A stretch of 64,000 nt of DNA from G963555815 sp965249615 [NCBI: bacterium] (GTDB lineage Bacteria > UBA8248 > JACPRG01): contig CBDFMI010000006.1 in NCBI GenBank assembly GCA_965249615.1, positions 124,001 through 188,000 of the forward strand. The letters are read 5' to 3'. The position numbers and the translations under genes were made by a program. Below, one piece after another: positions 602 to 15,348 of the stretch. The notes beneath the pieces are model-generated. The model made no database searches. It was not told the DNA's origin and was given only the letters and a program-made list of their open reading frames with translations. Position 1 is the first letter of the stretch, and each line of letters begins with the position of its first letter.

Positions 602-627
602 GCAAAGAAAGGAAGATTGAGCTCAAG

Positions 628-1236: not shown

Positions 1237-1388
1237 AGAAGCGCTCTCAAGATGGCCATTACGGCCAGTGGGGGCTGGGGCGCGTCACCGCCCCAGGCCG
1301 CGAGGGTTCGCCTCGCATGATCGGTTGGCCATACCGACCACCCCACCATCGCGCAGACGCGACAGTGGGATTTTAAGAGCGAGGCGTC

Positions 1389-1580
1389 ATGGAGTCTATT
1401 CGGTGTGGAAAATGCAGCCGCCTTTTGTGCAGACGCGACCACAAATCATTGGAGGTCAAGTGTCCGCGATGCGGAACAATGAATCATCTGAGGGCCTGGA
1501 GCCCCGCCACCGAGCGCCCACGAGTGCCGCCGTCCGAGGAGGATGGTCGTGGGCAAAAAGAAGGGAACGAGGAGACTTAG
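1389..1580 (+). CDS. com: Mu Com-like zinc-finger translational regulator
   Basis: A 63-residue protein with a four-cysteine zinc knuckle, Cys6-x2-Cys9 and Cys25-x2-Cys28, in the context IRCGKCSRLLC and VKCPRCGTMNHL. This is the signature of the Com family of Mu-like prophages. In phage Mu, Com binds the mom mRNA and exposes the mom translation start. Here the gene overlaps the start of a DNA adenine methylase, the same arrangement as Mu com-mom. Family membership is seen in the motif; control of the methylase is inferred from overlap and from the hairpin over the methylase start. The basic, Pro/Glu-rich tail after residue 34 is not conserved-looking. Confidence 0.85.
   Translation: MESIRCGKCSRLLCRRDHKSLEVKCPRCGTMNHLRAWSPATERPRVPPSEEDGRGQKEGNEET
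1530..1546 (+). promoter_or_regulatory. Hairpin over the methylase translation start
   Basis: The arms CCGTCC (1530-1535) and GGATGG (1541-1546) pair with one G-T wobble around a GAGGA loop. The Shine-Dalgarno-like GAGGAGG (1536-1542) and the first ATG (1543) of the methylase are thus partly sequestered. This resembles the Mu mom start, which Com melts; the function here is inference. Confidence 0.4.
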
Positions 1581-2433
1581 GTCACCTATTCCTTGGCTGG
1601 GCGGGAAGAGCCGGATGGTCTCCAAGATCGCCCCACTCTTGCCACAGTGCGGGATCTACGTTGAGCCGTTCGGGGGTGCCGCCAGTATGCTTCTGGCCCG
1701 AGAGCCCTCTTCCGTCGAGGTCTACAACGATGTCGATGGTCGCCTGGTCAACTTCTTCCGTGTCGTCCGGGACCCGGCAAAGGCGAGGGAGCTCAGGCGG
1801 ATGCTGAAACTGACCCCCTTTTCCAGAGGTGAGTTTCACGCCTCCGTGGATCTTCAGGCGGGCGAAGGGGTGAAGGCGGCACACGCCTTCTTCATCCGTG
1901 CGAAGCAGAGCTTTGCCGGAGAGACGAGCACCTGGGGTTTCGCAAAAACGAGCACGAGGGGGATGTCTCAGAGGACCTCGGCGTGGTTGGGTGGCATAGA
2001 GCTTCTCCCGCTCCTCACCGACCGGATCATGCGGGTTCAGATCGAGCAGGTGGGTTGGGAGGCCTGCATGAAGAACTTCGACACCCCGGAGACCCTCTTT
2101 TACTGCGACCCGCCCTATTTCCCAGGGGCCAGAAAGAATGGCCAATACAAGCATGAGCTGACCGAGGACGACCACGAAAGGTTTCTCTGCGTCGTCCGGG
2201 AGCTCAAAGGGGCAGTCGCCATCTCAGGCTATATGTGTCCCCCCTACAAAGAGGCCCTGAAGGGCTGGGGATTGTCTACTTGGAAGGTGTCCTGCAACGC
2301 GGCGGGGCGAACTCGTGGGTCAGGGCTGCTGGGCAAGGGAGCGGCAAAACGAAAGGTCCCTCGCGTTGAGCATCTCTGGCGGAACCCCGCGTGCATGAAG
2401 GCACTCAGAGCGGAAGAGGTGAAAAATGGCTGA
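1543..2433 (+). CDS. Phage DNA N6-adenine methyltransferase, D12 (Dam-like) class
   Basis: A 296-residue methylase that should transfer a methyl group from S-adenosylmethionine to adenine N6. The SAM-binding motif appears near the N-terminus as PWLGGKSRMV, followed by YVEPFGGAASML and EVYNDVDGRLVNFF. The catalytic motif is DPPY at residues 189-192 (FYCDPPYF). Length and order of motifs fit the D12 class. ATG at 1543 abuts the GAGGAGG sequence, so GTG at 1549, six bases downstream, may be the real start. The gene overlaps com by about 35 bases and the next gene by 8. In prophages such enzymes modify viral DNA against host restriction; recognition sequence unknown. Confidence 0.9.
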   Translation: MVVGKKKGTRRLRSPIPWLGGKSRMVSKIAPLLPQCGIYVEPFGGAASMLLAREPSSVEVYNDVDGRLVNFFRVVRDPAKARELRRMLKLTPFSRGEFHASVDLQAGEGVKAAHAFFIRAKQSFAGETSTWGFAKTSTRGMSQRTSAWLGGIELLPLLTDRIMRVQIEQVGWEACMKNFDTPETLFYCDPPYFPGARKNGQYKHELTEDDHERFLCVVRELKGAVAISGYMCPPYKEALKGWGLSTWKVSCNAAGRTRGSGLLGKGAAKRKVPRVEHLWRNPACMKALRAEEVKNG

Positions 2434-3478
2434 TCAGAGAATCCAGTCCACAGAGGAGATGGTGGGAGAAGGCCACGCCACCAAGGCCGATACGCTCAAC
2501 CGGCTGGCCGTCGTAGAGCATGAGAACGACGGTAAGCACACGAGAAGCACCTACGTCGAGCAGGGGTCCGATCCTCCCACGGGGGTCAACGAGCTCGCCG
2601 TTTATTCAAAGGACGATGGGAGCGGGAACAATGAGCTTTACGTCAAAGGGGAATCAGAAGGCACCCCTTTGAAGCTCACGAAGACAAAGGGAACCGAGCT
2701 GAACGTCTCGGCGGGGCTTCCCAAGGGGTATGTCCAGGGATGGAAGATGACGGCCGGGACCGACACGGTGAACGATGTGGACTTTGCCATCGGGAAGGGC
2801 CGGGCAGATGACGACTCTGCGGACATCGAGACAACGGGCGTCCTGACTCTAGCACTCGACTCCACCGGCGCTGGCGGAAGGCAAGCCGCCGATACCCTGA
2901 CCAACGGGTCCTTCTGGAGGGTCTACATGATCGGAGGCGGCGGGAATACCGTCAAACCCTTCGCCGTGAAGTCCGGGTCCAGCGTCACCCTCCCTGGGAC
3001 CTACACGATCAAGGCCCACCTGAACTATGTCTATTACAAAGATGGGACTGTCGGGATTATTGGCTTTGAACACGGAGAGGACGGGGTTGTTAGGTTTAAG
3101 GATGGGGGCGACGTCCCCGAGGATCTAGACACCACCTCGCCGGCCACCACCTGGACCAACGTGACGCTGACGATCCACGCAGATATTCTCCTTCCCCTGA
3201 TCTCGTTCACTGGGGCAAACCACACGACGGAATCAAATAACCACTTCAACGCGGCCATTCGACCCGACACCTGGGATTGGAAAGGGGGCCAGCAAACTGA
3301 AGATCCCGTCCCAGGATTGGCTGTTAACTGGCATGGGAATTCACTGGACACAGCGGCCCAAGTTTTGTCGCTTCTCCCGGCCCCAGGAGGGATCGTCGAA
3401 TACAAGTCTAAGAACGGGACCATCAGCAGGATTCGGATCTACGTCATGGGGTTCTACAACGGGCCTTACACCCCATAG
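2426..3478 (+). CDS. Phage tail fibre-like or appendage protein
   Basis: A 350-residue protein without recognised family, rich in Gly, Thr, Asp and Asn and predicted by composition to be mainly beta structure. The N-terminal 50 residues are polar and helical. It contains no membrane segment. The start ATG at 2426 follows GAGGTGAAAA and overlaps the methylase stop by 8 bases, suggesting translational coupling. Location after the com-methylase pair and before a short chaperone-sized gene suggests a fibre or host-recognition protein, but this is inference from position and composition only. Confidence 0.6.
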   Translation: MADQRIQSTEEMVGEGHATKADTLNRLAVVEHENDGKHTRSTYVEQGSDPPTGVNELAVYSKDDGSGNNELYVKGESEGTPLKLTKTKGTELNVSAGLPKGYVQGWKMTAGTDTVNDVDFAIGKGRADDDSADIETTGVLTLALDSTGAGGRQAADTLTNGSFWRVYMIGGGGNTVKPFAVKSGSSVTLPGTYTIKAHLNYVYYKDGTVGIIGFEHGEDGVVRFKDGGDVPEDLDTTSPATTWTNVTLTIHADILLPLISFTGANHTTESNNHFNAAIRPDTWDWKGGQQTEDPVPGLAVNWHGNSLDTAAQVLSLLPAPGGIVEYKSKNGTISRIRIYVMGFYNGPYTP

Positions 3479-3487
3479 GAGGGACCG

Positions 3488-3895
3488 ATGTATAGCGTCG
3501 TCTTTGAAAAAAGCACGGGAAAGGTGATCGAGAAGGGGGCCTCGGATGTCTCGCGGTTTTCGTCCACAGCCGTTGGGGTATTGGCCTTTCCCCTGGAACC
3601 GAGGGCCGAGTGGTCGAACATCAAGAAGGAGCACCTGGTTGTGGACAACCCATCGTCGGTCTCTCCTGTTCTGAGAGAAATGACGCGGACTGAGAAGACT
3701 GCGCTGAAGGCCATCCAGGACGCCCAAGAAGCCGCCCGCCTAAAAACCATCTCGGACGGAGAACAGGCCGTCATCGACGGCATGGTGATATCTGAGGAGC
3801 AAGCCAGGGCGAAAGGGACCCCAGAGGGAACCGCTATGGCGGACCGCATCCTGGCCGAGATCGACCGTCGGAAAGCCGCTCTGGCCGCTGCATAG
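3488..3895 (+). CDS. Phage hypothetical protein, possible fibre assembly partner
   Basis: A 135-residue protein starting at ATG 3488 just after GAGGGACCG, nine bases beyond the previous stop. The first half is beta-like (MYSVVFEKSTGKVIEKG); the second half is a long charged and Ala-rich helix (EKTALKAIQDAQEAARLK). Tail fibre genes are often followed by a small assembly or cap protein, which would fit, but no family signature was recognised. It is the last gene in the window that I assign to the prophage. Confidence 0.55.
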   Translation: MYSVVFEKSTGKVIEKGASDVSRFSSTAVGVLAFPLEPRAEWSNIKKEHLVVDNPSSVSPVLREMTRTEKTALKAIQDAQEAARLKTISDGEQAVIDGMVISEEQARAKGTPEGTAMADRILAEIDRRKAALAAA

Positions 3896-4038
3896 GACCA
3901 TCGACGCCAATAAAACGAGGCCCTTTTTGACAAGGTAGGGAGACACTCCTATATTCGAAAGAAGGCCTTGAAACCAGCGGGCCAAAAGGGATCTCGCGGA
4001 CAGATTGGCGTGTTTGACCAGGGAAAGGAGCGGGCAAA

Positions 4039-4236
4039 TTGGGTAAGCCGAGAGACACATACAAGTATCACTTTAAAGATGGAAACAAGATTCTCCACAG
4101 CGGCATCACCAATGATCTTGATCGACGAGAAGATGAGCATCAACAGACTTGGCCTGGCGGACACATCAAGCAGGTCGGTCACAAGACGACCGAAGATGGT
4201 GCCCGCGAGTGGGAGGAAGACCAGGACAAGGCTTGA
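4039..4236 (+). CDS. Small GIY-YIG-like protein
   Basis: A 65-residue protein starting at TTG 4039, eight bases after GGAAAGGAG. The core KYHFKDGNKILHSGITND followed by LDRREDEHQQ resembles the first half of a compact GIY-YIG nuclease fold, with a Tyr-x-Phe/Tyr strand, a Gly-Ile-Thr strand and the Arg/His helix (DRREDEHQ), then GHIKQVG and an acidic helix (EDGAREWEED). The classic second YIG is replaced by SGIT, so nuclease activity is uncertain. It lies just beyond the prophage end; whether it belongs to the phage or host is unknown. Confidence 0.6.
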   Translation: MGKPRDTYKYHFKDGNKILHSGITNDLDRREDEHQQTWPGGHIKQVGHKTTEDGAREWEEDQDKA

Positions 4237-4304
4237 TCGTCGAGTCCGTCCTTGAACCGTTGAGGTGTCCATCTGTTTGAATCTCACCCCTGCCGAGGAA
4301 AACG

Positions 4305-4487
4305 ATGGATTCAATGACGAAGGTCGCACTCTGGCTTATTGCCCTTGGGCTTTGGGGACTCCTACTGAAGCCTGTCTTCATCCCGAGCCCGGCTGACGCC
4401 CAGAGAAGCATGATGGACGTCAACATTCAGGCCGTTGGTGGTGTAGCTCTCGGCTTCGGCGAAGCGCTTCCGGTGTCTGAGAAATAG
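4305..4487 (+). CDS. Short secreted or membrane-anchored protein
   Basis: A 60-residue protein with one hydrophobic N-terminal segment (TKVALWLIALGLWGLLL) and a signal-peptidase-like site after ADA-Q, leaving a mature part of only about 26 residues. The ATG at 4305 is preceded by CGAGGAAAAC, an adequate ribosome binding site; a second ATG at 4314 is possible. Function unknown. Similar one-helix small proteins occur widely in uncultured bacteria. Confidence 0.55.
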   Translation: MDSMTKVALWLIALGLWGLLLKPVFIPSPADAQRSMMDVNIQAVGGVALGFGEALPVSEK

Positions 4488-4732
4488 GACCTGTCGCTGG
4501 CCGTTTGAGCAGGCCTGATAGGTCCTCGTCGGCCACCAGGTCCTTGGGTAGCCACCAGGTCCCGGAAGGCCCCGAGAAGTCCTGAGAGGTGGATTGTGCG
4601 TCAGGGATGGTTCCCTGTGTAGGCATCAGAACAGCGGTCTGGATGAGCCTTGAGCTGAGCTGAGACACCTGGTCTTTGCGAGCTCAAGGAGCTCCTAAAA
4701 GAGAGCTGCTCCACATAGGTCCTGCGTCGGAG

Positions 4733-4765
4733 TTATCCACAACCCGAAACCCCGAGTTATCCACA
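4733..4765 (+). promoter_or_regulatory. Two direct DnaA boxes
   Basis: TTATCCACA occurs at 4733-4741 and again at 4757-4765, both inside the longer direct repeat GAGTTATCCACA, 24 bases apart. These match the DnaA consensus exactly. They could serve replication of a mobile element, titrate DnaA or regulate transcription of the downstream gene; the sequence does not decide. Confidence 0.5.
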
Positions 4766-4893
4766 GGTAACCAGGCTACAAGGACGTCCACGAGACCTGG
4801 TGTTGGGTTAGAAACTGGCGACGCTGTCTCGGCCATTTACCGAAATTATTCGCGGCAACATACCGAAAGCGGCAACAGCGGCGGCCTTGCTGG

Positions 4894-4899
4894 TATAAT
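4894..4899 (+). promoter_or_regulatory. TATAAT -10 element of first WD40 gene
   Basis: A perfect TATAAT ends only nine bases before the ATG at 4909, so a transcript starting at the usual distance would begin at or next to the start codon. The matching paralogue at 6888 has the same TATAAT followed by a normal leader with AAAGGAGA. No good -35 box is visible here. Confidence 0.45.
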
Positions 4900-4908
4900 A
4901 AGAACCAT

Positions 4909-5880
4909 ATGATGACGCGTCGTTTTTGCCTTCAGGCTCTTTTTATCTTCCTTTCCGCCCTCTTTGCGGCGTCGCTCACCGCCTCCCAAGAAATTCGGGT
5001 CCTTCAGGGAGATGGATTCGACGTCAAGTCCGTCGCCTTTTCGCCGGACGGGAGCATCCTCGCGTCGGGGTTAACTTCCGGGACCATTCTCCTCTGGGAG
5101 CCCTCGTCGGGAAAAGAGCTGAAACGCCTTGAGGGACATACGGGCTATGTTTTCTCGATCTCCTTTTCGCCCGATGGCCGTCTCTTGGCCTCGGGGTCAT
5201 CGATAGACAACACCATCCGCCTCTGGGACGTGTCCTCAGGGGAAGAACTGAAACGCCTCGAAGGGCATGGAAGCTATATCAGGTCCGTCTCTTTTTCCCC
5301 GGACGGTCGCCTGCTGGCCTCAGGGTCTGATGACAGGACAGTCCGCCTCTGGGACGTTTCGTCTGGGAGGGAGCTGGCGCGCCTGGAGGGGCATGGAAAT
5401 GTGGTCGGCTCGGTCGCCTTCTCGCCCGGCGGCCGCCTCCTGGCGTCGGGGGCATGGGATCGCACGATTCGCTTCTGGGATGTCGCCTCAACAAAAGCGT
5501 CAAGGCGCCTTGAGGGGCTTGCGGACTTCGTGGTGTCCATCTCCTTCTCGCCTGACGGTGGCCTTCTGGCATCAGGATTGGCCGACGGGACGATCCATAT
5601 TTGGGAGGTCTCCTCAGGGAAAGAACTCAGGAGACTTAAGGGGCATCGCTTTGCGGTCAACTCTGTCGCCTTCTCGCCCGATGGTCGTCTTGTCGCCTCA
5701 GCGTCAGACGACCAGACCGTCCGACTCTGGGATGTTTCCTCAGGGAAAGAACTAAGGAAATTCAAGGGACATGGAGGCTCTGCCAACTCCGTCGCCTTCT
5801 CGCCCGATGGCCGTCTCCTGGCGTCAGGGTTAGATGACAAGACGGTCCGCCTCTGGGAAGTTTTAGCCAAACCACCCTAA
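4909..5880 (+). CDS. Secreted WD40 beta-propeller protein, copy 1 (seven repeats)
   Basis: A 323-residue protein: signal peptide (about residues 1-27, FCLQALFIFLSALFAASLTAS) followed by seven WD40 repeats of about 42 residues that fill the whole mature chain, each with the core SVAFSPDGRLLASGS and a closing RLWDVSSGKEL. Seven blades make a complete propeller. No enzymatic domain is attached, so it is probably a periplasmic or extracellular protein-interaction scaffold. It is the first of three tandem paralogues sharing promoter, signal peptide and 3-prime tail. There is no Shine-Dalgarno sequence, consistent with a leaderless mRNA. Confidence 0.9.
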   Translation: MMTRRFCLQALFIFLSALFAASLTASQEIRVLQGDGFDVKSVAFSPDGSILASGLTSGTILLWEPSSGKELKRLEGHTGYVFSISFSPDGRLLASGSSIDNTIRLWDVSSGEELKRLEGHGSYIRSVSFSPDGRLLASGSDDRTVRLWDVSSGRELARLEGHGNVVGSVAFSPGGRLLASGAWDRTIRFWDVASTKASRRLEGLADFVVSISFSPDGGLLASGLADGTIHIWEVSSGKELRRLKGHRFAVNSVAFSPDGRLVASASDDQTVRLWDVSSGKELRKFKGHGGSANSVAFSPDGRLLASGLDDKTVRLWEVLAKPP

Positions 5881-5967
5881 TCTCGCTGAAAGCCTTCATC
5901 AAAGAAGAGAAACAAAAAACTTGAGAGATCTTTTATGGGTATGATTAAAGGCCACAGGGAGGCCGGG

Positions 5968-6807
5968 ATGCTCATGCAGAGATGGTCCCTTCGGGTTTTA
6001 ATCGCCCTTCTGTTTACCTTTCTGACCTCACCGCCCGCCCTTTCCCAGGCAGTTCGGGTCTTGGAGGGGGGAGGCTGGGTCTCCTCCGTTGCCTTTTCCC
6101 CCGATGGCCGCCTCCTTGTCTCTGGGTCAAACGACGAAACCATTCGGCTTTGGGATGTAGACACAGGGGAAGAACTAAAACGCTTTGAAGGACAGGGGGG
6201 CTGGATTTTTTCCGTCGCCTTTTCCCCGGATGGCCGACTCCTCGCCTCTGGTTCAAACGACGGAACCATCCGGCTTTGGGACGTGACTGCTGGGAAAGAA
6301 TTGCGGCGCCTTGAGGGACAGGGAAAGGCTGTCTTCTCTGTTGCCTTCTCCCCTGACGGCCGTCTCCTCGCCTCTGCGTCGGAGGACCCCACCATCCGGC
6401 TTTGGGATGTAGACACAGGGATAGAATTGAGACGCTTGAAGGGGCATGAATCCGTTGTCGTCTCTGTCGTCTTTTCCCCTGACGGCCGTTTTCTCGCCTC
6501 TGGGTCAGCAGACCTCACCGTCCGCCTTTGGGACGTGTCCTTAGGGGAGGAATTAAGGCGCCTGGAGGGACATGAAAAGACAGTCTTCTCCGTCGCCTTT
6601 TCCCCTGACGGCCACCTCCTCGCCTCTGGGTCATTGGACAACATCATCCGCCTTTGGAATGTAGCCGTAGAGGGAGAATCAAGACGCCTGGAGGGGCATA
6701 AAGACTGGGTCCTCCCCATCGCCTTTTCCCCTAATGGCCGCTTTCTCGCCTCTGGGTCAACTGACAAGACCATCCGCCTCTGGGAAGTTTCAGCCAAACC
6801 ACCCTGA
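5968..6807 (+). CDS. Secreted WD40 beta-propeller protein, copy 2 (six repeats)
   Basis: A 279-residue protein with signal peptide (MLMQRWSLRVLIALLFTFLT then SPPALSQ) and six WD40 repeats, one fewer than its neighbours. I start it at ATG 5968 because GGGAGG precedes it by six bases and the signal peptide then begins properly; an earlier ATG at 5935 would add 11 polar residues. The sequence before the start (TATGATT, then an AGGGAGG leader) aligns with the region before copy 3. Ends with the shared SAKPP tail. A six-bladed arrangement may be real or may mean one blade was lost by recombination between near-identical repeats. Confidence 0.88.
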   Translation: MLMQRWSLRVLIALLFTFLTSPPALSQAVRVLEGGGWVSSVAFSPDGRLLVSGSNDETIRLWDVDTGEELKRFEGQGGWIFSVAFSPDGRLLASGSNDGTIRLWDVTAGKELRRLEGQGKAVFSVAFSPDGRLLASASEDPTIRLWDVDTGIELRRLKGHESVVVSVVFSPDGRFLASGSADLTVRLWDVSLGEELRRLEGHEKTVFSVAFSPDGHLLASGSLDNIIRLWNVAVEGESRRLEGHKDWVLPIAFSPNGRFLASGSTDKTIRLWEVSAKPP

Positions 6808-6862
6808 TCCCGCCAAAGGCCTTTGTCAAAGAAGAGCAGAAACCTGAGAGACACCTTTCGGA

Positions 6863-6868
6863 TATAAT
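6863..6868 (+). promoter_or_regulatory. TATAAT -10 element of third WD40 gene
   Basis: TATAAT lies 19 bases before the ATG at 6888, followed by AAAGGAGA as ribosome binding site. Position and surroundings match the element before copy 1, indicating that the promoter was copied along with the gene. Confidence 0.4.
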
Positions 6869-6887
6869 CAGGCCAAAGGAGAAAAAG

Positions 6888-7852
6888 ATGCGTGCACGCC
6901 GTTTTTGCCTTCAGGTCCTAATTGTCCCTCTTTCCATTCTTCTTGCGTCTCTTGCCTTCTCCCAAGAAGTTCGGGTCCTTGAGGGGCACGACAACGAGGT
7001 CATCTCCGTCACCTTCTCATCCGATGGCCGCCTCCTGGCCTCTGGGTCGATGGACGATACTATCCGCCTTTGGGAGGTCTCATCAGGGACGGAGCTAAAA
7101 CGCCTTGAGGGGCATGAAGGCAATGTCAACTCTGTCAGCTTTTCACCCGATGGCCGCCTTCTGGCCTCTGGGTCAGATGACAACACCGTCCGCCTCTGGG
7201 AGGTCTCCTCAGGGAAGGAGATAAGACGCCTTGAGGGGCGTGGAAAGGAGGTCACCTCCGTGTCCTTCTCGCCCGACGGCCGTCTTCTGGCATCAGGGTC
7301 ATTTGACAGGATCGTCCGCCTCTGGGAGGTCTCATCGGGGAAGGAGATAAGACGCCTTGAGGGCATGGGAATGTGGTCGCCTCCGTGGCCTTCTCGCCCG
7401 ATGGCCGCCTCCTCGCATCAGGGTCTTGGGACACCGCCATCCTCCTCTGGGAGGTCTCCTCAGGAAAGGAGCTAAGGCGCCTTGCGGGGAATACGGACTG
7501 GGTCACCTCCGTCTCCTTTTCGCCCGATGGCCGTCTCTTGGCGTCAGGGGCATGGAACGACACCATCCTCCTCTGGGATGTCTCCTCAGGGACGGAACTA
7601 AAGCGTTTGGAGGGGGTTGAGGACATGGTCTTCTCCGTCTCCTTTTCGCCCGACGGCCGTCTTCTGGCATCAGGGTCATTTGACAAGACCATCGTCCTCT
7701 GGGAGGTCTCCTCAGGGACGGAGCTAAGGTGCCTTGAGGGGCATGAAAAGACGGCCTTCTCCGTCTCCTTTTCACCCGACGGCCGCCTCCTGGCGTCAGG
7801 GTTATGGGACAACACCATCCGCCTGTGGGAAGTTTCAGCCAAACCGCCCTGA
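6888..7852 (+). pseudogene. Secreted WD40 beta-propeller protein, copy 3, frameshifted
   Basis: Signal peptide (CLQVLIVPLSILLASLAFSQ) and seven WD40 repeats are all recognisable, but the reading frame breaks at 7361-7363. There the sequence has GAGGG-CATGGG where intact repeats have GAGGGG-CATGG, so one G is missing. Restoring it joins the frame 6888-7363 with the frame that runs to 7852 and gives a 321-residue protein with a perfect junction (RRLEGHGNVVASVAFSPDGR). As written, translation would stop at 7475 after four blades and out-of-frame residues. It may be a recent mutation, a phase-variable tract or a sequencing error; the rest of the gene shows no decay, favouring the last two. Confidence 0.85.
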
Positions 7853-7882
7853 TCCCGCCGAAGGCCCCCCGGAGAACGCACA

Positions 7883-8284
7883 ATGTCTCAGATCTGGGTA
7901 GAAGTGGAAGAGAGCCCTAACTGCCCTTACCACCCACAGCAGGTGTTCGAGGCGTTGGGCGAGGTGAAGACGGCCGCCGAGATCCGTGTGGCGGACGTGG
8001 CGGGCAAAAATGTGCCGGAGATCATTGCCGGGTGGTCAAGCGTGGACGGGGGGAGCCCCTGTCCCGTCCGCTATGTGAAGGTGACGGACTCGGGGTCGGG
8101 CGTCTCTCTGATAGTGTGCGGAGGAGATTTTGGGATTCGGGTCCGGCTGGCAGACCACCCAGGACCCTGGAACCTGGCGGACGATGCTCAAAGGGGCGAG
8201 GCCTACCTGCTGCTAGACCCCCAAACAACCGTGACGCCGTTAGACAACCGAACAGGAGGTCTTGATGAGGCTCAACAACGGTGA
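7883..8284 (+). CDS. Hypothetical protein coupled to the selenoprotein
   Basis: A 133-residue soluble protein of unknown family. It begins at ATG 7883, after GGAGAACGCACA. Four cysteines are scattered (NCPYHPQ near residue 11, PCPVRYV near 60, IVCGGDFG near 77). Its last 20 bases overlap the start of the selenocysteine-encoding redox gene, implying translational coupling and perhaps a shared redox function. The overlap is seen; the functional link is inferred. The three WD40 genes lie immediately upstream but end with their own tail and need not be co-transcribed. Confidence 0.65.
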   Translation: MSQIWVEVEESPNCPYHPQQVFEALGEVKTAAEIRVADVAGKNVPEIIAGWSSVDGGSPCPVRYVKVTDSGSGVSLIVCGGDFGIRVRLADHPGPWNLADDAQRGEAYLLLDPQTTVTPLDNRTGGLDEAQQR

Positions 8285-8738
8285 CCCATTCCCAAGTGTG
8301 AGCGGTCCTACTGCGGGCGGGGGACGTCTGGCGATCCCCGAAGATTTGAAACACGAATGGAACATTGTCCTTTTCTATCGAGGTCACTGGTGACATTTCT
8401 GCAATCTGCAGTTTGCAGACTTTGTTGGACACGGCGAAGAGTTCGAAAAGGCGGGTATCGGCATTGTCGCCCTATCGGTCGATGGGGAGGAAGACACCCA
8501 GAAGATGGTGGAAAAGAACAAGATCGGTTTTCCGGTCATTTACGGGTTGGACGTGAGGAAAGAGGCCGAAAAGATCGGCTCTTATTTTGACAGTGAGAAG
8601 GGTTACCTTCACCCCGCCAATTTCATCGTGCAGAAGGGTAAAGTGATCAGCGCGACCCACTCCAGCGGTCCGTTAGGCCGCCTCCAGGCCGAACAAACGC
8701 TCATGCTCATCAACCACTATCGCGGACAGGCAAAATAG
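8265..8738 (+). CDS. AhpC/TSA-like thiol oxidoreductase, selenoprotein with in-frame UGA (Sec43)
   Basis: The ATG at 8265 follows AGGAGGT by six bases. The frame runs to TAG at 8738 with one internal TGA at 8391-8393, giving 157 residues with selenocysteine at 43. Before the TGA: EDLKHEWNIVLFYRGHW; after it: HFCNLQFADF, then GIVALSVDGEED, GFPVIYGLD and HPANFIVQKGKVI. This is the peroxiredoxin-like core FYRGxWCPxC with the catalytic Cys replaced by Sec, giving a UxxC redox motif. A hairpin begins five bases after the TGA. Ordinary gene callers would report only a fragment from 8505. Expected role: reduction of peroxides or disulfides. Sec insertion needs selB, selA/selD and tRNA-Sec, none of which is in this window. 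Confidence 0.85.
8398..8419 (+). promoter_or_regulatory. Candidate bacterial SECIS hairpin
   Basis: TCTGCAA (8398-8404) and TTGCAGA (8413-8419) form a perfect 7-base-pair stem around an 8-base loop, starting five bases after the TGA. An extra C-G pair across the loop would leave UGCA with a G as second loop base, as bacterial SECIS elements prefer, but the G is 15 bases from the UGA, at the short edge of the usual spacing. Confidence 0.55.
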
Positions 8739-8762
8739 GAAGGAATCAGTCCCGGGTTTCTT

Positions 8763-8781
8763 GACGGGGAGCCTCCCCGTC
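8763..8781. repeat. Perfect GC-rich inverted repeat between convergent genes
   Basis: GACGGGGA and TCCCCGTC face each other across GCC, between the end of the selenoprotein gene and the oppositely oriented lexA region. It may help terminate transcription, but no T-tract follows on either strand. Confidence 0.35.
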
Positions 8782-8793
8782 CTCAGACTTCGC

Positions 8794-8913
8794 TCAGCAG
8801 GGACAATAACTGTATCCAGTGCCGGAGGCCAGGATGGCGTACACCTTCTGCATCACGTGGTAAAACCGCGTCAAAAACCCTTCCGCCCGGCATTTAGAAA
8901 CAGTCTCAGCCAT
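8794..8913 (-). CDS. Possible 39-residue Cys-containing small protein downstream of lexA
   Basis: On the minus strand after lexA there is an ATG-initiated frame of 39 residues, beginning MAETVSKCRAEGFLTRFY, continuing HVMQKVYAILASGTGY and ending in YCPC. It has the composition of a real protein (amphipathic helix then a Cys-Pro-Cys end), but only a weak ribosome binding site is seen and no family is recognised. It could also be a degenerate gene end. Confidence 0.3.
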   Translation of the reverse strand: MAETVSKCRAEGFLTRFYHVMQKVYAILASGTGYSYCPC

Positions 8914-8955
8914 CTTAATGATTTCTCTCGATACCAGAATAGATATGGGATTTTT

Positions 8956-9549
8956 TCAATACTTCCTCAAGACCCCAACCACGACCCCCTGGATCTGCAG
9001 GTCGCCCTCCTTTAGTACGATGGGGCTCATGGACGGATTCGCGGGCTGAAGGCGGACGTTCCCGTTTTCCCGGTAGAACCGCTTGAGCGTCGCCTCTTTC
9101 CCCTGCAGGAGCGCCACGACTGTCTCCCCAATCTCCGCCGTCGACTGCTCTTTGATGATGACGTAGTCCCCGTCCTGAATGTGGTCGTCGATCATGGACT
9201 CTCCGCGCACCTGAAGAACATAAAGATCTTTGGCCCCCGCCTCGGTCCAGGGAAAGGCGATGGTCTGCGGATCGGCGATAGCCTCAAGGGGGCTCCCGGC
9301 GGCGATGTAACCGAGGAGGGGCAGACCCGCTATCTCCGTCCCCTCCAGGACCTCGATAGAGCGGCTTCGGTTCCAGCCCCGCTTGATGAGGCCCTTTGAA
9401 ATGAGGTTCAGGATGTGCTTGTGGACCGTTGCCGGCGACGTTAGGCCGAATGCCTCGCCAATCTCATGAAGGCTGGGCGAATAGCCTTTCTCCTTGATGA
9501 AATTCTTGACGAAATCCAGGATCTCGCGCTGTCTCCTGGTCAGATACAT
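8956..9549 (-). CDS. lexA: LexA SOS repressor
   Basis: A 197-residue LexA repressor-protease. The N-terminal winged helix (residues 1-65, TRRQREILDFVKNFI) binds SOS operators. The C-terminal part is the S24 latent protease. The cleavage site Ala84-Gly85 (GYIAAGSP), nucleophile Ser118 (RGESM) and Lys156 (ATLKRF) are all present, so RecA-stimulated self-cleavage should work. ATG at 9549 is preceded on the minus strand by ACAGGAGAG. The recognition helix (SLHEIGEAFGLTSPATVHKHI) is typical of LexA outside Gammaproteobacteria. No CTGT-N8-ACAG box is present at its own promoter. Confidence 0.97.
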   Translation of the reverse strand: MYLTRRQREILDFVKNFIKEKGYSPSLHEIGEAFGLTSPATVHKHILNLISKGLIKRGWNRSRSIEVLEGTEIAGLPLLGYIAAGSPLEAIADPQTIAFPWTEAGAKDLYVLQVRGESMIDDHIQDGDYVIIKEQSTAEIGETVVALLQGKEATLKRFYRENGNVRLQPANPSMSPIVLKEGDLQIQGVVVGVLRKY

Positions 9550-9572
9550 CGCATCTCTCCTGTTTCAGAGAT

Positions 9573-9585
9573 GTTTCAAAGAAAC
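9573..9585. promoter_or_regulatory. Candidate LexA operator: GTTTC-AAA-GAAAC palindrome
   Basis: A perfect inverted repeat GTTTC/GAAAC lies in the lexA leader. TGTTTCA also occurs twice as a direct repeat (9561-9567 and 9572-9578). Because LexA normally represses its own gene and no classical SOS box is seen, one of these is a candidate operator; untested. Confidence 0.3.
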
Positions 9586-9639
9586 CTTTTCGTCTCTTGT
9601 GATCTCGAAGAGGTCTGAACTTTTTCTTTTCAATACGGG

Positions 9640-9667
9640 ATCTTAGCGAAATCGAAACGAAAGTCAA
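9640..9667 (-). promoter_or_regulatory. lexA promoter
   Basis: On the minus strand TTGACT (9667-9662) is followed after 16 bases by TAAGAT (9645-9640), about 90 bases before the lexA start codon. Good match to a housekeeping sigma-70 promoter. Confidence 0.5.
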
Positions 9668-9697
9668 GACAAAACCCCCCCCCCCGCATTGATCGGC

Positions 9698-9737
9698 TTG
9701 ACAGGCGAGACATTGGGACATACCTTATAGGGGTATA
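9698..9737 (+). promoter_or_regulatory. csoR-copA promoter with CsoR-like operator
   Basis: TTGACA (9698-9703), 17 bases, then TACCTT (9721-9726). The pseudo-palindrome TACCTTATAGGGGTATA (9721-9737) overlaps the -10 region and resembles the operator of CsoR copper repressors. AGGAGGT follows at 9750. This predicts copper-relieved autorepression of csoR and the adjoining copA. Confidence 0.6.
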
Positions 9738-9759
9738 GGGTATAGACTAGGAGGTCCCG

Positions 9760-10029
9760 ATGATTGACCAGGAGACGAAGCAGCTGGCCCTTGGCCGCTT
9801 GAACCGGATTGAGGGGCAAATCCGCGGGTTGAAAGGGATGATGGAGGCCGAAAAATACTGTATCGACGTCATCCACCAGGTCAACGCGGCCCGCCGGGCC
9901 CTGGAACAGGTCGCCCTCCTGGTGATGAAGCGCCACCTGAAGAGCTGTGTCTCTGAGGCCATCCAAGAGGAAGACGGTGCCGGGAAGGTCGAGGAGTTCA
10001 TGAGGAGTATAGATAAGTTCATCCGGTGA
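9760..10029 (+). CDS. csoR: CsoR-family copper-sensing repressor
   Basis: An 89-residue all-helical DUF156-family repressor. The copper-binding triad is present as Cys34 (EKYCIDVIHQVNAARRAL), His59 and Cys63 (RHLKSCV), which matches the Cu(I)-binding C-H-C set of CsoR and not the sets of the Ni/Co sensor RcnR or the formaldehyde sensor FrmR. Binding of Cu(I) releases the operator. The gene sits directly upstream of a copper-exporting ATPase, with its own operator-like sequence before it, forming a self-contained copper-response unit. ATG at 9760 has a strong AGGAGG ribosome binding site. Confidence 0.93.
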   Translation: MIDQETKQLALGRLNRIEGQIRGLKGMMEAEKYCIDVIHQVNAARRALEQVALLVMKRHLKSCVSEAIQEEDGAGKVEEFMRSIDKFIR

Positions 10030-10065
10030 GGGTCGTCAGCCCACTGATGGGCCACAGGATCTGTC

Positions 10066-12534
10066 ATGACGAATGAAGAACACATGGACGTTGCCGCCCA
10101 CAAGGGGCACACTCACCCCAGCGGCGGCGGAACGGCAAAGGACCCCGTCTGCGGGATGGACGTTCAGCCGGAGACCACCGAACACCGGCACGATCACGAT
10201 GGCCACGCTTACTTTTTTTGCAGCGGCCATTGCCTGCATAAATTCCAACAAGACCCTGCCAAGTATTTAAATTCCTCGCCAGCCGCACGACCTCAACCGG
10301 TGGATGCGGGTGGAATATATATCTGCCCGATGGACCCTGAAGTACGCCAGGAGGGCCCTGGCTCATGCCCCAAGTGCGGCATGGCCCTCGAGCCGGAACT
10401 CGTGACGGCCCCGGCCCTTAAAACAGAGTACGTCTGCCCTATGCACCCGGAGGTCGTCCAGGGTAAGCCGGGGTCGTGCCCCATATGCGGGATGGCCCTC
10501 GAGCCCCACACCGTGACCTCGGAAGAAGAAAATCCGGAGCTGGTGGACATGACCCGGCGCTTCTGGGTGACCCTGTCCCTGGCGGTTCCGGTCCTGTTCC
10601 TCTCCATGTCGGACTTGATACCAGGCCAACCTGTTCAGCGCGCGATCCCACCGTTTCTTTCGACGTGGATTCTGCTGGCGCTTTCCACACCGGTTGTGCT
10701 CTGGGGCGGAAAACCTTTCTTTGAGCGTGGCTGGGCCTCCATCGTGAACCGCAGCCTCAACATGTTTACGCTCATCGCCATCGGCGTCGGCACGGCCTAC
10801 GCCTTCAGCGTGGTGGCCACCCTGTTCCCGGGCGTCTTCCCAGAGGTATTCCGCGGAGAAGGGGGTGAGGTGGCTGTCTACTTTGACGCGGCCGCGATGA
10901 TCACCGCCCTGGTTCTCCTGGGACAGGTGCTGGAGTTGCGCGCCCGTAGCCGGACCAGCAGCGCCATCAGGGCACTGCTCGGTTTTGCGCCCAAGATGGC
11001 CCGGGTAATCCGCGAAGACGGAAACGAAGAGGATATCCCGTTGGATCAGGTCCAACGGGGAGACCGACTTCGGGTCCGTCCCGGCGAGAAGGTGCCGGTG
11101 GACGGGAACGTCCTGGAGGGTGTGAGTTCCGTGGACGAGTCCATGGTGACTGGTGAGCCGATCCCGGTGGAAAAAGCCTCGGGCGGCCGGGTCATCGGAG
11201 GGACCGTGAACGGGACGGGCGGCTTCGTGATGAAGGCGGAGCGTGTGGGCAGCGAAACGCTCCTCGCGCAGATTGTCCAGATGGTGAGCGAGGCCCAACG
11301 GAGCCGCGCCCCCATCCAGCGTCTGGCGGATCTCGTTTCCTCTTACTTTGTTCCGGCAGTCGTCCTTGCGGCCGTCGCGACATTCATCATCTGGAGTCTC
11401 ATTGGACCTGAGCCGCGGATGGCCTTCGCCTTGGTCAACGCCGTGGCGGTCCTGATCATCGCCTGTCCGTGTGCGTTGGGGTTGGCGACGCCGATGTCCA
11501 TCATGGTGGGGACGGGCCACGGGGCAACCGCCGGTGTGCTGATTAAGAACGCCGAGGCCCTCGAAATCTTGGAGAAGGTGGACACGCTGGTCGTGGACAA
11601 GACCGGGACGCTCACGGAAGGCAAGCCCCGCCTGACCTCGGTGGTGGCCCTCCCGGATAAGAGCGACTCAGAAATTTTGGGCCTGGCCGCGAGTCTGGAG
11701 CGGGCCAGCGAACATCCCCTCGCTGCGGCCATCGTGGCCGGGGCAAAAGAGAAGGGGCTTGAACTTTTTAGCGTTGAGGATTTCCGATCCATCACCGGGA
11801 AAGGCGTGGTTGGAAAGATCGGGGAGCGGGCTGTGGCCCTAGGCAACAGGAACCTCTTCGAAGAGCTGGAAATTTCGATAGGAGATCTGTTGGAGAGGGC
11901 GGAGGCGCTGCGAAGGGAAGGCCAGACCGTGATGTTCCTCGCCGTGGACGGACGTCCGGCCGGACTCCTCGGCGTCGCAGACCCGATCAAAGCGTCTACG
12001 CCAGAGGCGATCCGGGCGCTTCACCGGGAGGGAGTCAACATCGTCATGCTGACCGGAGACAGCCAAACCACCGCCGAGGCAGTGGCCCGCCAGCTCGGGC
12101 TTGATGACGTGAAATCGGAGGTGCTGCCCGCGCAGAAAAGAGAGGTGGTCAAGAGTCTTCAATCAGAGGGCCGTGTGGTGGCGATGGCGGGCGACGGCGT
12201 CAATGACGCACCGGCCTTGGCCCAGGCCCAGGTCGGCATCGCCATGGGGGCGGGCACGGACGTGGCCATTGAAAGCGCTGGGGTGACGCTGGTGAAGGGC
12301 GACCTTCGCGGCATCGCCCGGGCCCGCCGGCTCAGCCGGGGCACGATGCGCAACATCCGGCAGAATCTGTTTTTCGCCTTCATCTACAACTCGCTTGGAA
12401 TCCCCCTGGCAGCGGGCGTTCTTTTTCCAGTATTCGGCCTGCTCCTCAGTCCTATCATCGCCAGCGCGGCGATGACCTTCAGCTCAGTGTCCGTGATCAC
12501 CAACGCCTTGCGCCTCCGAAGCCTGGATCTGTAA
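10066..12534 (+). CDS. copA: Copper/silver-exporting P1B-type ATPase with YHS and CPxH metal-binding domains
   Basis: An 822-residue inner membrane pump. The N-terminus is unusual: a His-rich start, a YHS domain (about 26-68, DPVCGMDV and [11 protein letters not shown]) and two short heavy-metal-binding modules (about 85-110 and 122-147, CPMDPEV / CPMHPEV with CPKCGM / CPICGM), instead of CxxC ferredoxin-like domains. Then come the membrane core with Cys467-Pro-Cys469, actuator TGEP, phosphorylation site Asp511 (DKTGTLTEG), the HP motif (SEHPLA) and [14 protein letters not shown] hydrolysis exports Cu(I) or Ag(I). It follows csoR by 36 bases and is probably in the same operon. Confidence 0.95.
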
Positions 12535-12547
12535 CAGAGATTTCAGT

Positions 12548-13828
12548 CTATCTGAGCCCCGCCCGTGCCTCCTGAGAGTTTTTTGACCCCTTCAGAAAAT
12601 AGCAGCAGAGGGAAGCGGCCAGGAGGACGCCCGTGGTGAGCAGGAAGGCGGGTCCGTAGCTCCCGGTCTGGTCAAAGACGGTTCCGGCAACAAAGGGTCC
12701 CAGAATGGAGCCCAGGGCGTGGCCGAAGAGGAGGTATCCATAGAGGGTGGGAAGGGACTTCCGCCCATAGATCCCGGCGGCGGCGGCCGGCGTGAGGGGG
12801 GTCGAGGCGAGGTGGAAGAAGCCGTAGACAATGACAAAGGCCATCAACATGGGGAGGCTTCTCGTCAAGAGGAGCATCGCAAACGCCAGCCCCCGGATGA
12901 GGTAGATGACGGTGAGGGGGACCCGCCAGCCGATCCGGTCCGTCCACATCCCCATGCTGATGACCCCCAGGATGCTGATGCCTCCGATGAGGCCTGTCAC
13001 GTTCGCGGCCGTCTGCTCTGAAACTCCGATCCCGACGGCAAAGATGGGGAAATGTGTGTAGAGGACAAAATCCGTAAAACCGCAAGCGAAATAGCTTCCG
13101 AAGAGGAGCCAGAAAGATCTGCTGCGAAGGGCCTTTCGGGTGGTCTTCTCGGGAATGATCCTGAGAGACCCCGCGAGTGAGGTGGCCTCCTCTGTGGGAA
13201 CAGGCGACCCTGACGCCCCGTCTGGCCGAAGCCCCTGGCTCTCCGGGGAGTCCCGGAGGATCCACCAAAGGATCGGAACCACAAGGAGCCAGAACATCCC
13301 CGTCCAGGCTTGATAGGCCCCGCGCCAGCCTAAAACGCCGATGAGGATCTGAGAAAACGGAATGAGCAGGAGTTGTCCCACGTTATAGCCGGAAATGGCG
13401 ATCCCGAGGGCCGTCGCCCTACTTTTGGTGAACCAGCGGGCCACGACGACGCTCGCGGTTGTCATCGCCGAGATCCCGGTTCCAAGGCCGATGAAGAGGA
13501 CGTAGGTGAGGTAGAGAATCCTGATGTCGGGGGCGAGGCTCGTCAGGGCCGCCCCGAGGCCGGCGATGAGGAACCCCGCCGTCATCACCCGGCGGGGGCC
13601 GAACCGGTCCAGGAGCCCCCCGATAAAAAGCTGGGAGAGGGCAAAGGGGACGAGCCCTGCGGAGGCCACAAGGGAGAGAGATGAGCGGGAACCCCCGAAC
13701 TCATCAAGGAGCGGCTTGAAGAAGACCCCAAACCCGGTCCAGAGGCCGCCCTGGAAGGCGAGGCCGACAAAAGTGGCCCCGACGATGTACCACCCGTAGA
13801 AGACTTTTTTAGAGGAAACGGTTGGCAT
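12548..13828 (-). CDS. Major facilitator superfamily transporter
   Basis: A 426-residue, 12-helix inner membrane transporter of the MFS, resembling the monocarboxylate/oxalate-formate (OFA) type. The motif-A-like loop GGLLDRFGPRRVMTAGF lies between helices 2 and 3 and its partner MWTDRIGWRVPLT in the second half. The start is taken at ATG 13828 (MPTVSSKKVFYGWYIV), since the longer frame begins with TTG and an implausible basic stretch. It converges on copA, with 13 bases between the stops. Substrate cannot be told from sequence. Confidence 0.85.
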   Translation of the reverse strand: MPTVSSKKVFYGWYIVGATFVGLAFQGGLWTGFGVFFKPLLDEFGGSRSSLSLVASAGLVPFALSQLFIGGLLDRFGPRRVMTAGFLIAGLGAALTSLAPDIRILYLTYVLFIGLGTGISAMTTASVVVARWFTKSRATALGIAISGYNVGQLLLIPFSQILIGVLGWRGAYQAWTGMFWLLVVPILWWILRDSPESQGLRPDGASGSPVPTEEATSLAGSLRIIPEKTTRKALRSRSFWLLFGSYFACGFTDFVLYTHFPIFAVGIGVSEQTAANVTGLIGGISILGVISMGMWTDRIGWRVPLTVIYLIRGLAFAMLLLTRSLPMLMAFVIVYGFFHLASTPLTPAAAAGIYGRKSLPTLYGYLLFGHALGSILGPFVAGTVFDQTGSYGPAFLLTTGVLLAASLCCYFLKGSKNSQEARAGLR

Positions 13829-14093
13829 AGGCTTTCTTGAAACGCGAACAAAAAACCTCAATCCCGTTCGTCCCGGCAATATAGAACGGCGGAGGATGTA
13901 AGGGAAGAAACATCTTGATCAATGCAACGGTTCAATGGGTCAAAGCGCTTGTCCCACCCCCATTTTCCCCCAGATTGAGCTCCCTAAAAACCTTCTTCGC
14001 GGCCCTTCTTGCAATCCCAATGGGATCGTGTGATTATCGGAGAATGTCAGAACGATCCCGGGAGAACCCAGCCAGGTGACGCAGGAGGGAGTG

Positions 14094-14420
14094 ATGGGCG
14101 AAGAAGAAAAGCCCATGAAGAGCGCCATTGAGCTGGCCTTGGAGCGGACGACCCGCTTCAAGAAGGACGCTGAAGAAGCGGCCCTGCCTGAGGAAAAGAG
14201 AAAACGCATCTCAGAGATCGAGAAGGAATATCAGGCTAAAGTGGCCGAGGCCGAAATCCTACTGGAGTCAAGGCTCAAGCAGGTCGTGCAGACCTTAGCC
14301 CCCGAGGAAGCCCCGATTCAAATTGAGGCGCTGCGCGAGGAGTTTCAAAAAGACCGGGAATCCCTGAACAAGAAAAAGTTTCTTGAGATCGAGAAGGTCA
14401 AAGGGCCTCCCCCAACCTAG
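14094..14420 (+). CDS. Small charged helical protein
   Basis: A 108-residue, highly charged protein that is probably one long coiled coil (KRKRISEIEKEYQAKVAEAE, then EALREEFQKDRESLNKKKF). No membrane segment or known domain. ATG at 14094 is chosen because AGGAGGG ends five bases earlier; a GTG at 14076 is an alternative. It stands alone on the plus strand among minus-strand genes. Function unknown; length and charge suggest a cytoplasmic structural or regulatory coiled coil. Confidence 0.65.
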   Translation: MGEEEKPMKSAIELALERTTRFKKDAEEAALPEEKRKRISEIEKEYQAKVAEAEILLESRLKQVVQTLAPEEAPIQIEALREEFQKDRESLNKKKFLEIEKVKGPPPT

Positions 14421-14506
14421 ATCTCCCGTTAAAAAGTTTCCCTTCGCACACCCAGCCAGCCTTTTAAAGATAGCGCCGCCGTCGCATGGGGCGGAGAGCG
14501 ATAGGG

Positions 14507-14964
14507 CTAAAGGACCCCTCCCGGGCCCGGCTTCGGAGGGTGAAGATTACCGAAGACGGCGGCGTGGGAGAATCCTTTCCGCAGACGGTAGAAGAAGAAA
14601 TAGCTGAGCTGTCGGGGGGCATTGGTGACCTGGTCGATCAGGAGGTGGAGGAGGTAGCCGAGAACCGCCCCCAAGAGCCAGAAGTTTGAAGGATACAACC
14701 AGACGGCAAGACCGCAGAGGGGAATCCACTCAAAGGCGTGGAGGGGGAGATAGACCGATCGGGGATGTGGCTTCTGGAACCCCAGAGAAGCAAGGCGGCC
14801 GAAACCCTTCCGCCAACCCCAGGTCCCGACAAAGTCGGGTATGTGGTCGAGGTCAACGAGCCAGCCAGAGAGGAAAAAACCAGGCCCATCTCGGCGGACC
14901 CTGTGGCAAGGCCGATAAGGCCCCCCCCTGCCGCTGAGATGCCAATGTGCCCCGCCGCGTTCAC
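14507..14964 (-). pseudogene. Small integral membrane protein (DUF457/YdjM-like), frameshifted
   Basis: The first part (MNAAGHIGISAAGGGLIGLA) and the last part (NFWLLGAVLGYLLHLLIDQV) are in different frames. The break is in the run of six A on the plus strand at 14874-14879. Adding one base there turns an implausible FSSLAGSLTSTTYP into FFLSGWLVDLDHIPDFVG and gives a continuous 152-residue membrane protein. The DLDHIPD and HLLIDQ motifs resemble membrane-bound putative metal-dependent hydrolases of the DUF457/YdjM type; this match is from memory of the motif only. No other decay is seen, so a sequencing error in the homopolymer is as likely as a true mutation. Confidence 0.6.
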
Positions 14965-15061
14965 GAGGAGAACACCCTCTCGAGGCGGCCGAGAATCATC
15001 CGCCCGCTTGGCCCTTTGGGATTGAGATTTGGCAAGAAAGTCTGGATGAGAGCCGCCCTCG

Positions 15062-15298
15062 TCAGTCTCCCGCCATCTGGCCTCGGAGCCGCTCCTTTTT
15101 CCATTTCTTCTTCAGATAGTTGATGACCAGGATCTCCACCATCTCCTCGGCGGTCTCCCGGTCCTCTCCAAAACCGTAGAATTCTTTTTCGACCTCCGGC
15201 CCCTGGTCTTCCGTCAGGAGGATTGCCCTGGATTCCCATTTCCCTTCGCCCGGGCTTGTCTCGATCTCGACAGCCCGATCCAGGACGGCCTTTCTCAT
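15062..15298 (-). CDS. Small acidic hypothetical protein
   Basis: A 78-residue soluble protein rich in Glu and Lys (RETAEEMVEILVINYLKKKW). ATG at 15298 is preceded on its strand by GGGAGGTCGCC, a good ribosome binding site. No domain recognised. It lies between the cold-shock-domain gene and the membrane protein gene on the same strand and may share a transcript with them. Confidence 0.6.
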   Translation of the reverse strand: MRKAVLDRAVEIETSPGEGKWESRAILLTEDQGPEVEKEFYGFGEDRETAEEMVEILVINYLKKKWKKERLRGQMAGD

Positions 15299-15348
15299 GG
15301 CGACCTCCCTTCGGGGCCAGGCCTGCCCCTTAAGGTTCCGTTCCTATT

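What the first reader, a model, noticed from the sequence alone, without database searches (positions are those of the whole stretch)
8265..8738. A hidden selenoprotein: in-frame UGA in the catalytic position of an AhpC/TSA-like protein
The sequence shows a good start (AGGAGGT, ATG 8265), a continuous frame to 8738 with one TGA at 8391, and family motifs on both sides of it. The UGA sits exactly where peroxiredoxin-like proteins have the peroxidatic Cys (FYRGxW[C]xxC), giving UxxC. A random stop would not fall there. A hairpin follows. Automated annotation would give only a truncated 77-residue ORF from 8505.
Basis: partly seen in the sequence, partly recalled or inferred. Interest (0 to 1): 0.85.

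Follow-up and report, generated by a model that had tools for sequence, protein, structure and literature searches.

The report
Overlooked selenocysteine redox protein gene
A bacterial gene that ordinary gene finders would cut short very probably reads one UGA stop codon as the rare amino acid selenocysteine in the active site of a small redox enzyme; proteins of this general kind are already known.

Summary
Window 8265-8738 (+) is one frame of 157 residues with a single in-frame TGA at 8391-8393 (residue 43, FYRGHW-U-HFC) inside a PF00578/PF08534 domain. It is very probably a selenoprotein gene. Profile searches of 1136 genomes in three phyla gave 12 strong relatives, and 12 of 12 have TGA at this codon (five of them had helped build the profile). 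Two are 72-74% identical to the window protein. The eight plasmid homologues aligned have Cys there. SelA was found in 14 of 15 carrier genomes and tRNA-Sec in 12 of 15. A small hairpin with an AGUU-type loop 16 nt after the UGA is more stable than synonymous recodings in the Sec genes, but not in eight Cys homologues. One correction: aligned with solved peroxiredoxins, Sec43 falls on the Thr of TxxC and Cys46 on the peroxidatic Cys, so this is a thioredoxin-type UxxC site. UxxC Prx-like selenoproteins have been described since 2005: a new member of a known kind. The window protein passes no NCBIfam cut-off. The host genome is not held, so its own Sec machinery was not tested. Patchy distribution and gene-bounded similarity suggest horizontal transfer.

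The parts
8254..8259 (+). AGGAGG, ribosome-binding site of the selenoprotein gene
   Evidence: Read directly; DNA similarity to the two closest orthologous contigs begins at 8254
8265..8738 (+). Selenoprotein gene: Prx-like/redoxin thiol:disulfide oxidoreductase, 157 aa with Sec at residue 43
8391..8393 (+). In-frame TGA read as selenocysteine (U43, motif U-H-F-C)
   Evidence: TGA at the aligned codon in 12 of 12 strong relatives; TGC or TGT in the eight Cys homologues
8400..8402 (+). Codon of Cys46, second residue of UxxC; aligns with the peroxidatic Cys of true peroxiredoxins
8405..8419 (+). Predicted bacterial SECIS hairpin; loop AGTTT (8410-8414) begins 16 nt after the UGA
   Evidence: Cys control; model criteria read
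8763..8781 (+). Perfect 9-bp inverted repeat GACGGGGAG/CTCCCCGTC, 24 nt after the stop codon; possible transcript end (no T run)
   Evidence: role inferred
7883..8284 (+). Upstream ORF of 133 aa without a Pfam match that overlaps the selenoprotein start by 20 nt; unsure whether it is a gene
   Evidence: no counterpart seen beside the two closest orthologues

Best explanation
The gene encodes a small selenoprotein, without an obvious signal segment, of the peroxiredoxin-like thiol:disulfide oxidoreductase kind (PF00578). A SECIS hairpin at 8405-8419 would recruit SelB with Sec-tRNA-Sec, so that the ribosome inserts selenocysteine at UGA 8391-8393. Sec43 is the N-terminal, nucleophilic residue of a thioredoxin-type UxxC pair; it would attack a peroxide or disulfide substrate and then form a selenenylsulfide with Cys46, which a thioredoxin-like reductant resolves. 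Shown here: the frame, the UGA conserved across phyla, the Cys homologues, purifying selection on both sides, hairpin stability beyond what the protein code demands, and Sec machinery in nearly all carrier genomes. Inferred: decoding in this host, the catalytic cycle and the substrate.
For: Frame and domain span the TGA. All 12 relatives at E <= 1e-28 in 1136 genomes carry TGA at the same codon (4 of 345; 3 of 396; 5 of 395; codon checked); five of the 12 (G030, G330, G337, G381, G422) were in the query profile. Positions 43 and 46 are invariant in 18 aligned rows with Sec written as C. dN/dS is about 0.12 before and 0.22-0.24 after the TGA. SelA is over its cut-off in 14 of 15 carriers. tRNA-Sec is over 64 bits in 8 of 8 carriers and in 4 of 7; ARAGORN reads anticodon TCA in the 8. 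The hairpin is more stable than synonymous recodings: window p = 0.018, 13 rows p = 0.007-0.074, sum -83.7 against -24.8 (sd 7.0), reached by 0 of 2000. Eight Cys homologues do not show this: p = 0.088-1.0, sum -12.7 against -10.3, reached by 473 of 2000. The Leu codon in the loop is TTG in 12 of 12 relatives (the window has TTT, Phe); of five Cys homologues listed, the three with Leu there use CTC or CTG. One helix pair is A-U in 8 rows and U-A in 3.
Against: The host genome is not held. G868, which carries the closest orthologue, showed neither SelA nor tRNA-Sec; G627 and G1024 showed SelA but no tRNA-Sec. Machinery is also common in non-carriers: SelB in 14 of 19, tRNA-Sec in 9 of 21 and in 18 of 19, so it discriminates only weakly. 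A mechanical scan with the published bSECIS criteria is unspecific: 147 of 300 random TGAs pass, only 3 of 9 Sec genes reach -7.5 kcal/mol, and 5 of 5 Cys homologues do. RNAalifold prefers another 4-pair hairpin on the same alignment. In the pair count 353 of 500 shuffles also have one pair changed on both sides, and five rows break pair 19-25. The region for searches was chosen after the conservation was seen; the rows are related; and codon usage came from the locus but from the gene alone.
Confidence: 0.93

Rival explanations
1. A nonsense mutation or sequencing error in an ordinary Cys peroxiredoxin-like gene (TGC or TGT to TGA).
For: Cys homologues have TGC or TGT at this codon, one base away from TGA.
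Against: The same TGA stands in two orthologues at 72-74% identity and in 10 further relatives of three phyla. Purifying selection continues after it. The hairpin excess is seen in the TGA forms and not in the Cys forms.
Confidence: 0.02
2. UGA is a sense codon for another residue in this organism (for example Trp or Gly, as in genetic codes 4 and 25).
For: TGA is in frame within a conserved domain.
Against: TGA is the apparent stop of 32 of 66 ORFs picked by a crude coding score in the window. Aligned homologues have Cys, not Trp or Gly, at the site. Carrier genomes have SelA and tRNA-Sec.
Confidence: 0.01
3. UGA is a Sec codon, but the protein is a true peroxidase with Sec in the peroxidatic role.
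For: The domain is AhpC-TSA/Redoxin. A UxxC protein of this fold might still reduce peroxides.
Against: In the alignments to solved peroxiredoxins Sec43 falls on the Thr of TxxC and Cys46 on the peroxidatic Cys. The peroxiredoxin and AhpC models that match the window protein score far under their curated cut-offs.
Confidence: 0.25
4. UGA acts mainly as a selenium-responsive switch: without selenium a 42-residue product is made, and read-through is regulatory.
For: Termination competes with Sec insertion at any Sec-UGA (general knowledge).
Against: Conservation lies in the full-length domain on both sides of the UGA. No regulatory partner was noticed beside the gene, but none was searched for systematically.
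Confidence: 0.04

Closest known systems
Prx-like thiol:disulfide oxidoreductase selenoprotein (PF00578, UxxC/UxxU), Table 1 of PMC13188914; 'Prx-like protein' of the Sargasso Sea (PMC1088965); 'Prx-like 1' of GOS (PMC2398784)
   Same: Same Pfam domain and same UxxC motif, with Sec at the first position.
   Different: The reference protein could not be fetched and compared. The subfamily here (FYRGxWUxxC with a C-terminal SxxxxGR) is not named in the passages read; the review text has no occurrence of 'Acidobacteri'.
Redoxin family selenoprotein (PF08534, UxxC), Table 1 of PMC13188914
   Same: PF08534 also matches over its cut-off, with the same motif.
   Different: PF00578 is the better match here (66.2 against 35.7 bits).
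Peroxiredoxin-like family selenoprotein (cd02970, UxxS), Table 1 of PMC13188914
   Same: Listed as AhpC/TSA family with Sec first in the motif.
   Different: UxxC here, not UxxS; cd02970 itself was not tested.
Sec-containing peroxiredoxin (PF00578, TxxU) and NCBIfam peroxi_PrxU
   Same: Same Pfam domain.
   Different: There Sec is the second residue of TxxU; here it sits three residues earlier. PrxU scores 23.2 bits against a cut-off of 270.
Plasmid 'peroxiredoxin family' or 'redoxin domain-containing' proteins of Deinococcus, Mycobacteriaceae and Hyphomicrobiales
   Same: Full-length homologues, 33-38% identity, CxxC at the site.
   Different: Cys instead of Sec, and no hairpin excess.

Membership tests
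Bacterial selenoprotein gene | In-frame UGA at a site that is Cys in homologues | tested here: met
Bacterial selenoprotein gene | UGA conserved in orthologues, with coding constraint after it | tested here: met
   12 of 12 strong relatives; dN/dS 0.22-0.24 after the TGA
Bacterial selenoprotein gene | bSECIS: loop 3-9 nt with G in its first two positions, 16-37 nt after UGA, stem 4-16 bp, MFE at or below -7.5 kcal/mol | tested here: met
   Hairpin 8405-8419, loop AGUUU at 16 nt; criteria read. The short hairpin alone folds at -6.3, short of -7.5; a longer fold around the same loop reaches -9.1. The criteria alone are unspecific; the weight lies.
Bacterial selenoprotein gene | selA, selB, selC and selD in the same genome | not testable with these tools
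   No whole genome held. In carrier genomes: SelA 14 of 15, tRNA-Sec 12 of 15, SelB 4 of 4 tested; selD not tested.
Bacterial selenoprotein gene | Selenium in the purified protein | not testable with these tools
   Needs experiment
Prx-like thiol:disulfide oxidoreductase selenoprotein (PF00578, UxxC) | PF00578 over its gathering score | tested here: met
   66.2 bits against 26
Prx-like thiol:disulfide oxidoreductase selenoprotein (PF00578, UxxC) | UxxC motif | tested here: met
   U43-H-F-C46
Prx-like thiol:disulfide oxidoreductase selenoprotein (PF00578, UxxC) | Clusters with the reference WP_010940744.1 | not tested
   The reference sequence was not obtained.
Typical peroxiredoxin / AhpC | TxxC with a peroxidatic Cys; curated models over cut-off | tested here: not met
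   The Thr position is Sec43. AhpC TIGR03137 22.7 bits against 272, and the other Prx models listed for the window protein are also below cut-off.
SelL-related redox protein (NF040769) | Score over the curated cut-off | tested here: not met
   26.6 bits against 120

The most novel reading that the evidence does not exclude
A distinct UxxC selenoprotein subfamily that moves horizontally between phyla as a single gene, with its SECIS inside the coding sequence, and takes hold where a Sec decoding system already exists. The window copy and those of G868 and G820 (72-74% identical) would be recent transfers between lineages whose other genes look far more distant.
Probability: 0.45. Interest if true: 0.5.

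Novelty: new member of a known kind. Interest (0 to 1): 0.4.

Why it matters
A mechanical ORF call leaves only a 77-residue tail of this gene, so selenium use in such lineages can be under-counted. The set found here (13 Sec genes, 12 of them in three phyla, plus Cys counterparts) is a natural contrast for testing how Sec-to-Cys exchange and SECIS selection go together.

Tried and rejected
Single-protein scans of genome contigs and viral contigs found no relatives, and a phages tblastn found nothing. The phylum search around G002 held one genome and gave nothing.

The published bSECIS criteria applied mechanically do not separate Sec genes from random TGAs, so I dropped that as evidence and used synonymous recoding with Cys controls. 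The pair count is modest.

AlphaFold2 on the single sequence gave mean pLDDT 43.4; I used neither the model nor a fold search. A coding-score scan for further TGA read-through genes in the window did not list the known case among its top 25, so it is too insensitive to exclude others.

Conserved neighbourhood: no window ORF of 1-20000 other than the selenoprotein matched seven carrier contigs, and none matched beside the two closest orthologues. Among the carriers themselves some neighbours are shared, for example a 300-residue ORF close to the gene in L107 and L108 (51% identical); I did not follow these. A class-wide search around G820 (38 genomes) gave only G820 and G868 again.

Full report
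OBSERVATION. The frame is as described. ATG 8265 follows AGGAGG at 8254-8259. Reading TGA as Sec gives 157 residues to TAG 8736-8738, with a single UGA at 8391-8393, residue 43. PF00578 (66.2 bits, cut-off 26) and PF08534 (35.7 bits, cut-off 26.6) both span it. In that frame the mechanical ORF list has only 8505-8738.

HOMOLOGUES. Plasmids: 49 records matched; nine regions were fetched. Eight proteins from them were aligned, and all eight have Cys at positions 43 and 46. The ninth (L089, a Deinococcus plasmid where the record splits the gene into two ORFs) was not aligned. Genomes: a first search of 20 gave two hits at E <= 1e-6, one with TGA at the site (L081) and one ordinary peroxiredoxin-like match without a stop (L082). 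Acidobacteriota, 199 genomes, gave 3 hits at E <= 1e-12, all with one TGA at the site. Nitrospirota, 245 genomes, gave 6 hits at E <= 1e-18: four with TGA at the site and two with Cys (L103, L104, weaker and more divergent); one of the four also counted a TAA, which is its normal end. With profile A4 at E <= 1e-28, Desulfobacterota gave 4 of 345, Acidobacteriota 3 of 396 and Nitrospirota 5 of 395. In all 12 the UGA stands in YRG-x-(W/F)-U-x-x-C. Five of these 12 genomes had supplied rows of the profile. L135 (G868) and L136 (G820) are 74% and 72% identical to the window protein.

SELECTION ON THE PROTEIN. Against L135 and L136, dN/dS is 0.12 for the 42 codons before the TGA and 0.24 and 0.22 for the 114 codons after it. 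More distant pairs are mostly saturated in dS.

SECIS. In the 13 Sec genes the bases CAGTT at 8409-8413 are invariant. They sit in a hairpin, 8405-8409 with 8415-8419, whose loop AGUUU starts 16 nt after the UGA. The review PMC13188914 (passages read) gives the bSECIS model: loop 3-9 nt, stem 4-16 bp, G in the first two loop positions, spacing 16-37 nt, MFE at or below -7.5 kcal/mol. The short hairpin folds at -6.3 and a longer fold around the same loop at -9.1. One pair is A-U in eight rows and U-A in three. The Leu codon in the loop is TTG in 12 of 12 relatives, although TTG is a minority Leu codon in each of those genes; the window has TTT, Phe. Against 2000 synonymous recodings per gene, the window hairpin is matched in 1.8% and the 13 rows in 0.7-7.4%, and the summed energy is never reached. 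Eight Cys homologues show no excess. Limits: the region was chosen after the conservation was seen; the rows are related, so the sum overstates the case; codon usage came from the locus and from the gene alone. Against this reading: the criteria alone are met by 147 of 300 random TGAs and by 5 of 5 Cys homologues but by only 3 of 9 Sec genes; RNAalifold prefers another small hairpin; 353 of 500 shuffles also have one pair changed on both sides.

MACHINERY. The window holds no tRNA gene and, at gathering scores, only a TPP riboswitch. Its genome is not held. In carriers of a TGA gene, SelB was over the cut-off in 4 of 4 tested (also in 14 of 19 non-carriers). tRNA-Sec was over 64 bits in 8 of 8 (also in 9 of 21 others; one-sided Fisher p = 0.0057, mixed phyla) and in 4 of 7 (also in 18 of 19 others; at most 108 candidates per genome were scored there). 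SelA was over the cut-off in 14 of 15. The seven non-carriers had no SelA match; none of them had tRNA-Sec over the cut-off, so they only show that the two agree. ARAGORN read tRNA-Sec with anticodon TCA in 12 of 12 loci and 6 of 6. G868 had neither SelA nor tRNA-Sec; its gene lies on a 3.8-kb contig, so an incomplete assembly is likely but not shown.

MECHANISM. A profile of 18 rows aligns with solved peroxiredoxins so that position 43 falls on the Thr and position 46 on the Cys of TPVC (alignments printed); ResA thiol-disulfide oxidoreductases are also among the matches (60 of 142 shown). Sec43 is therefore best seen as the nucleophile of a thioredoxin-type UxxC pair. PMC1088965 (passages) describes a Prx-like family with a thioredoxin-like UxxC instead of TxxU, and PMC1914089 (one passage) notes that the two Sec positions differ. 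The catalytic cycle is inferred from these families, not shown.

HOST AND TRANSFER. The window's ValS is at most about 52% identical by BLAST to the 80 loci kept of a capped list, and a tree does not place it firmly. In about 0.86 Mb of G820 (roughly a quarter of that genome), 9 of 44 window ORFs had a match: 29010-29627, 29624-30016 and 30081-30896 at 45-48%, part of the copper ATPase at 44%, ThiG at 72%, and four at 27-32% that may be paralogues; the selenoprotein is 72%. DNA similarity to both orthologous contigs covers 8254-8735 only. The gene has 53% G+C in a window of 60%; its orthologues have 47-48% on contigs of about 54%. The G820 contig resembles its bin in tetranucleotides (0.92 against a mean of 0.945), so misbinning is not evident. 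The gene tree joins window, G868 and G820 with support 97/99 and the five Cys forms with 90/89, the latter below the starred level. Together with presence in 12 of 1136 genomes, this suggests horizontal transfer. The comparison rests on few genes, and ThiG does not set the selenoprotein apart.

NOVELTY. UxxC Prx-like selenoproteins have been described since 2005 (passages read of PMC1088965, PMC2398784, PMC13188914 and PMC9312934). No NCBIfam model passes its cut-off for the window protein; for the other 17 rows of A6 only E-values were shown, the best 6.4e-13, and no cut-offs. Searches of the held library for motif words (no paper) and for selenoproteins with these phyla (listing only, two papers that look unrelated) found nothing specific. 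This is a new member of a known kind.

Noticed in passing
window 4909-7852: A run of four WD40-repeat ORFs; 6888-7475 and 7373-7852 overlap in different frames, which may mean one propeller gene broken by a frameshift.
   Followed up: partly
window 44130-47567: 1145-aa protein with an N-terminal caspase domain (PF00656, 3.9e-16); NCBIfam 'caspase, EACC1-associated type' matches under its cut-off.
   Followed up: no
window 36530-39259: Two neighbouring pentapeptide-repeat proteins, 42% identical over 328 residues, with a Cys/His-rich start.
   Followed up: no
window 47733-49024: TPP riboswitch (70.2 bits) upstream of thiG, an ordinary arrangement.
   Followed up: no
window 9760-12534: Metal-sensing repressor of the CsoR/RicR kind (RicR model 72.5 bits, under its cut-off of 175) next to a heavy-metal P-type ATPase with YHS and HMBD domains.
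   Followed up: no
L081, L084, L085: Longer relatives with hydrophobic N-termini and the same FYRG-x-W-U-x-x-C site in Acidobacteriota-phylum genomes: possibly a second, exported branch of UxxC selenoproteins.
   Followed up: partly
window 7883-8284: 133-aa ORF without a Pfam match that overlaps the selenoprotein start by 20 nt; possible translational coupling or a chance frame.
   Followed up: partly
L107 and L108: A 300-residue ORF close to the selenoprotein gene is shared by two Nitrospirota carriers (51% identical).
   Followed up: no
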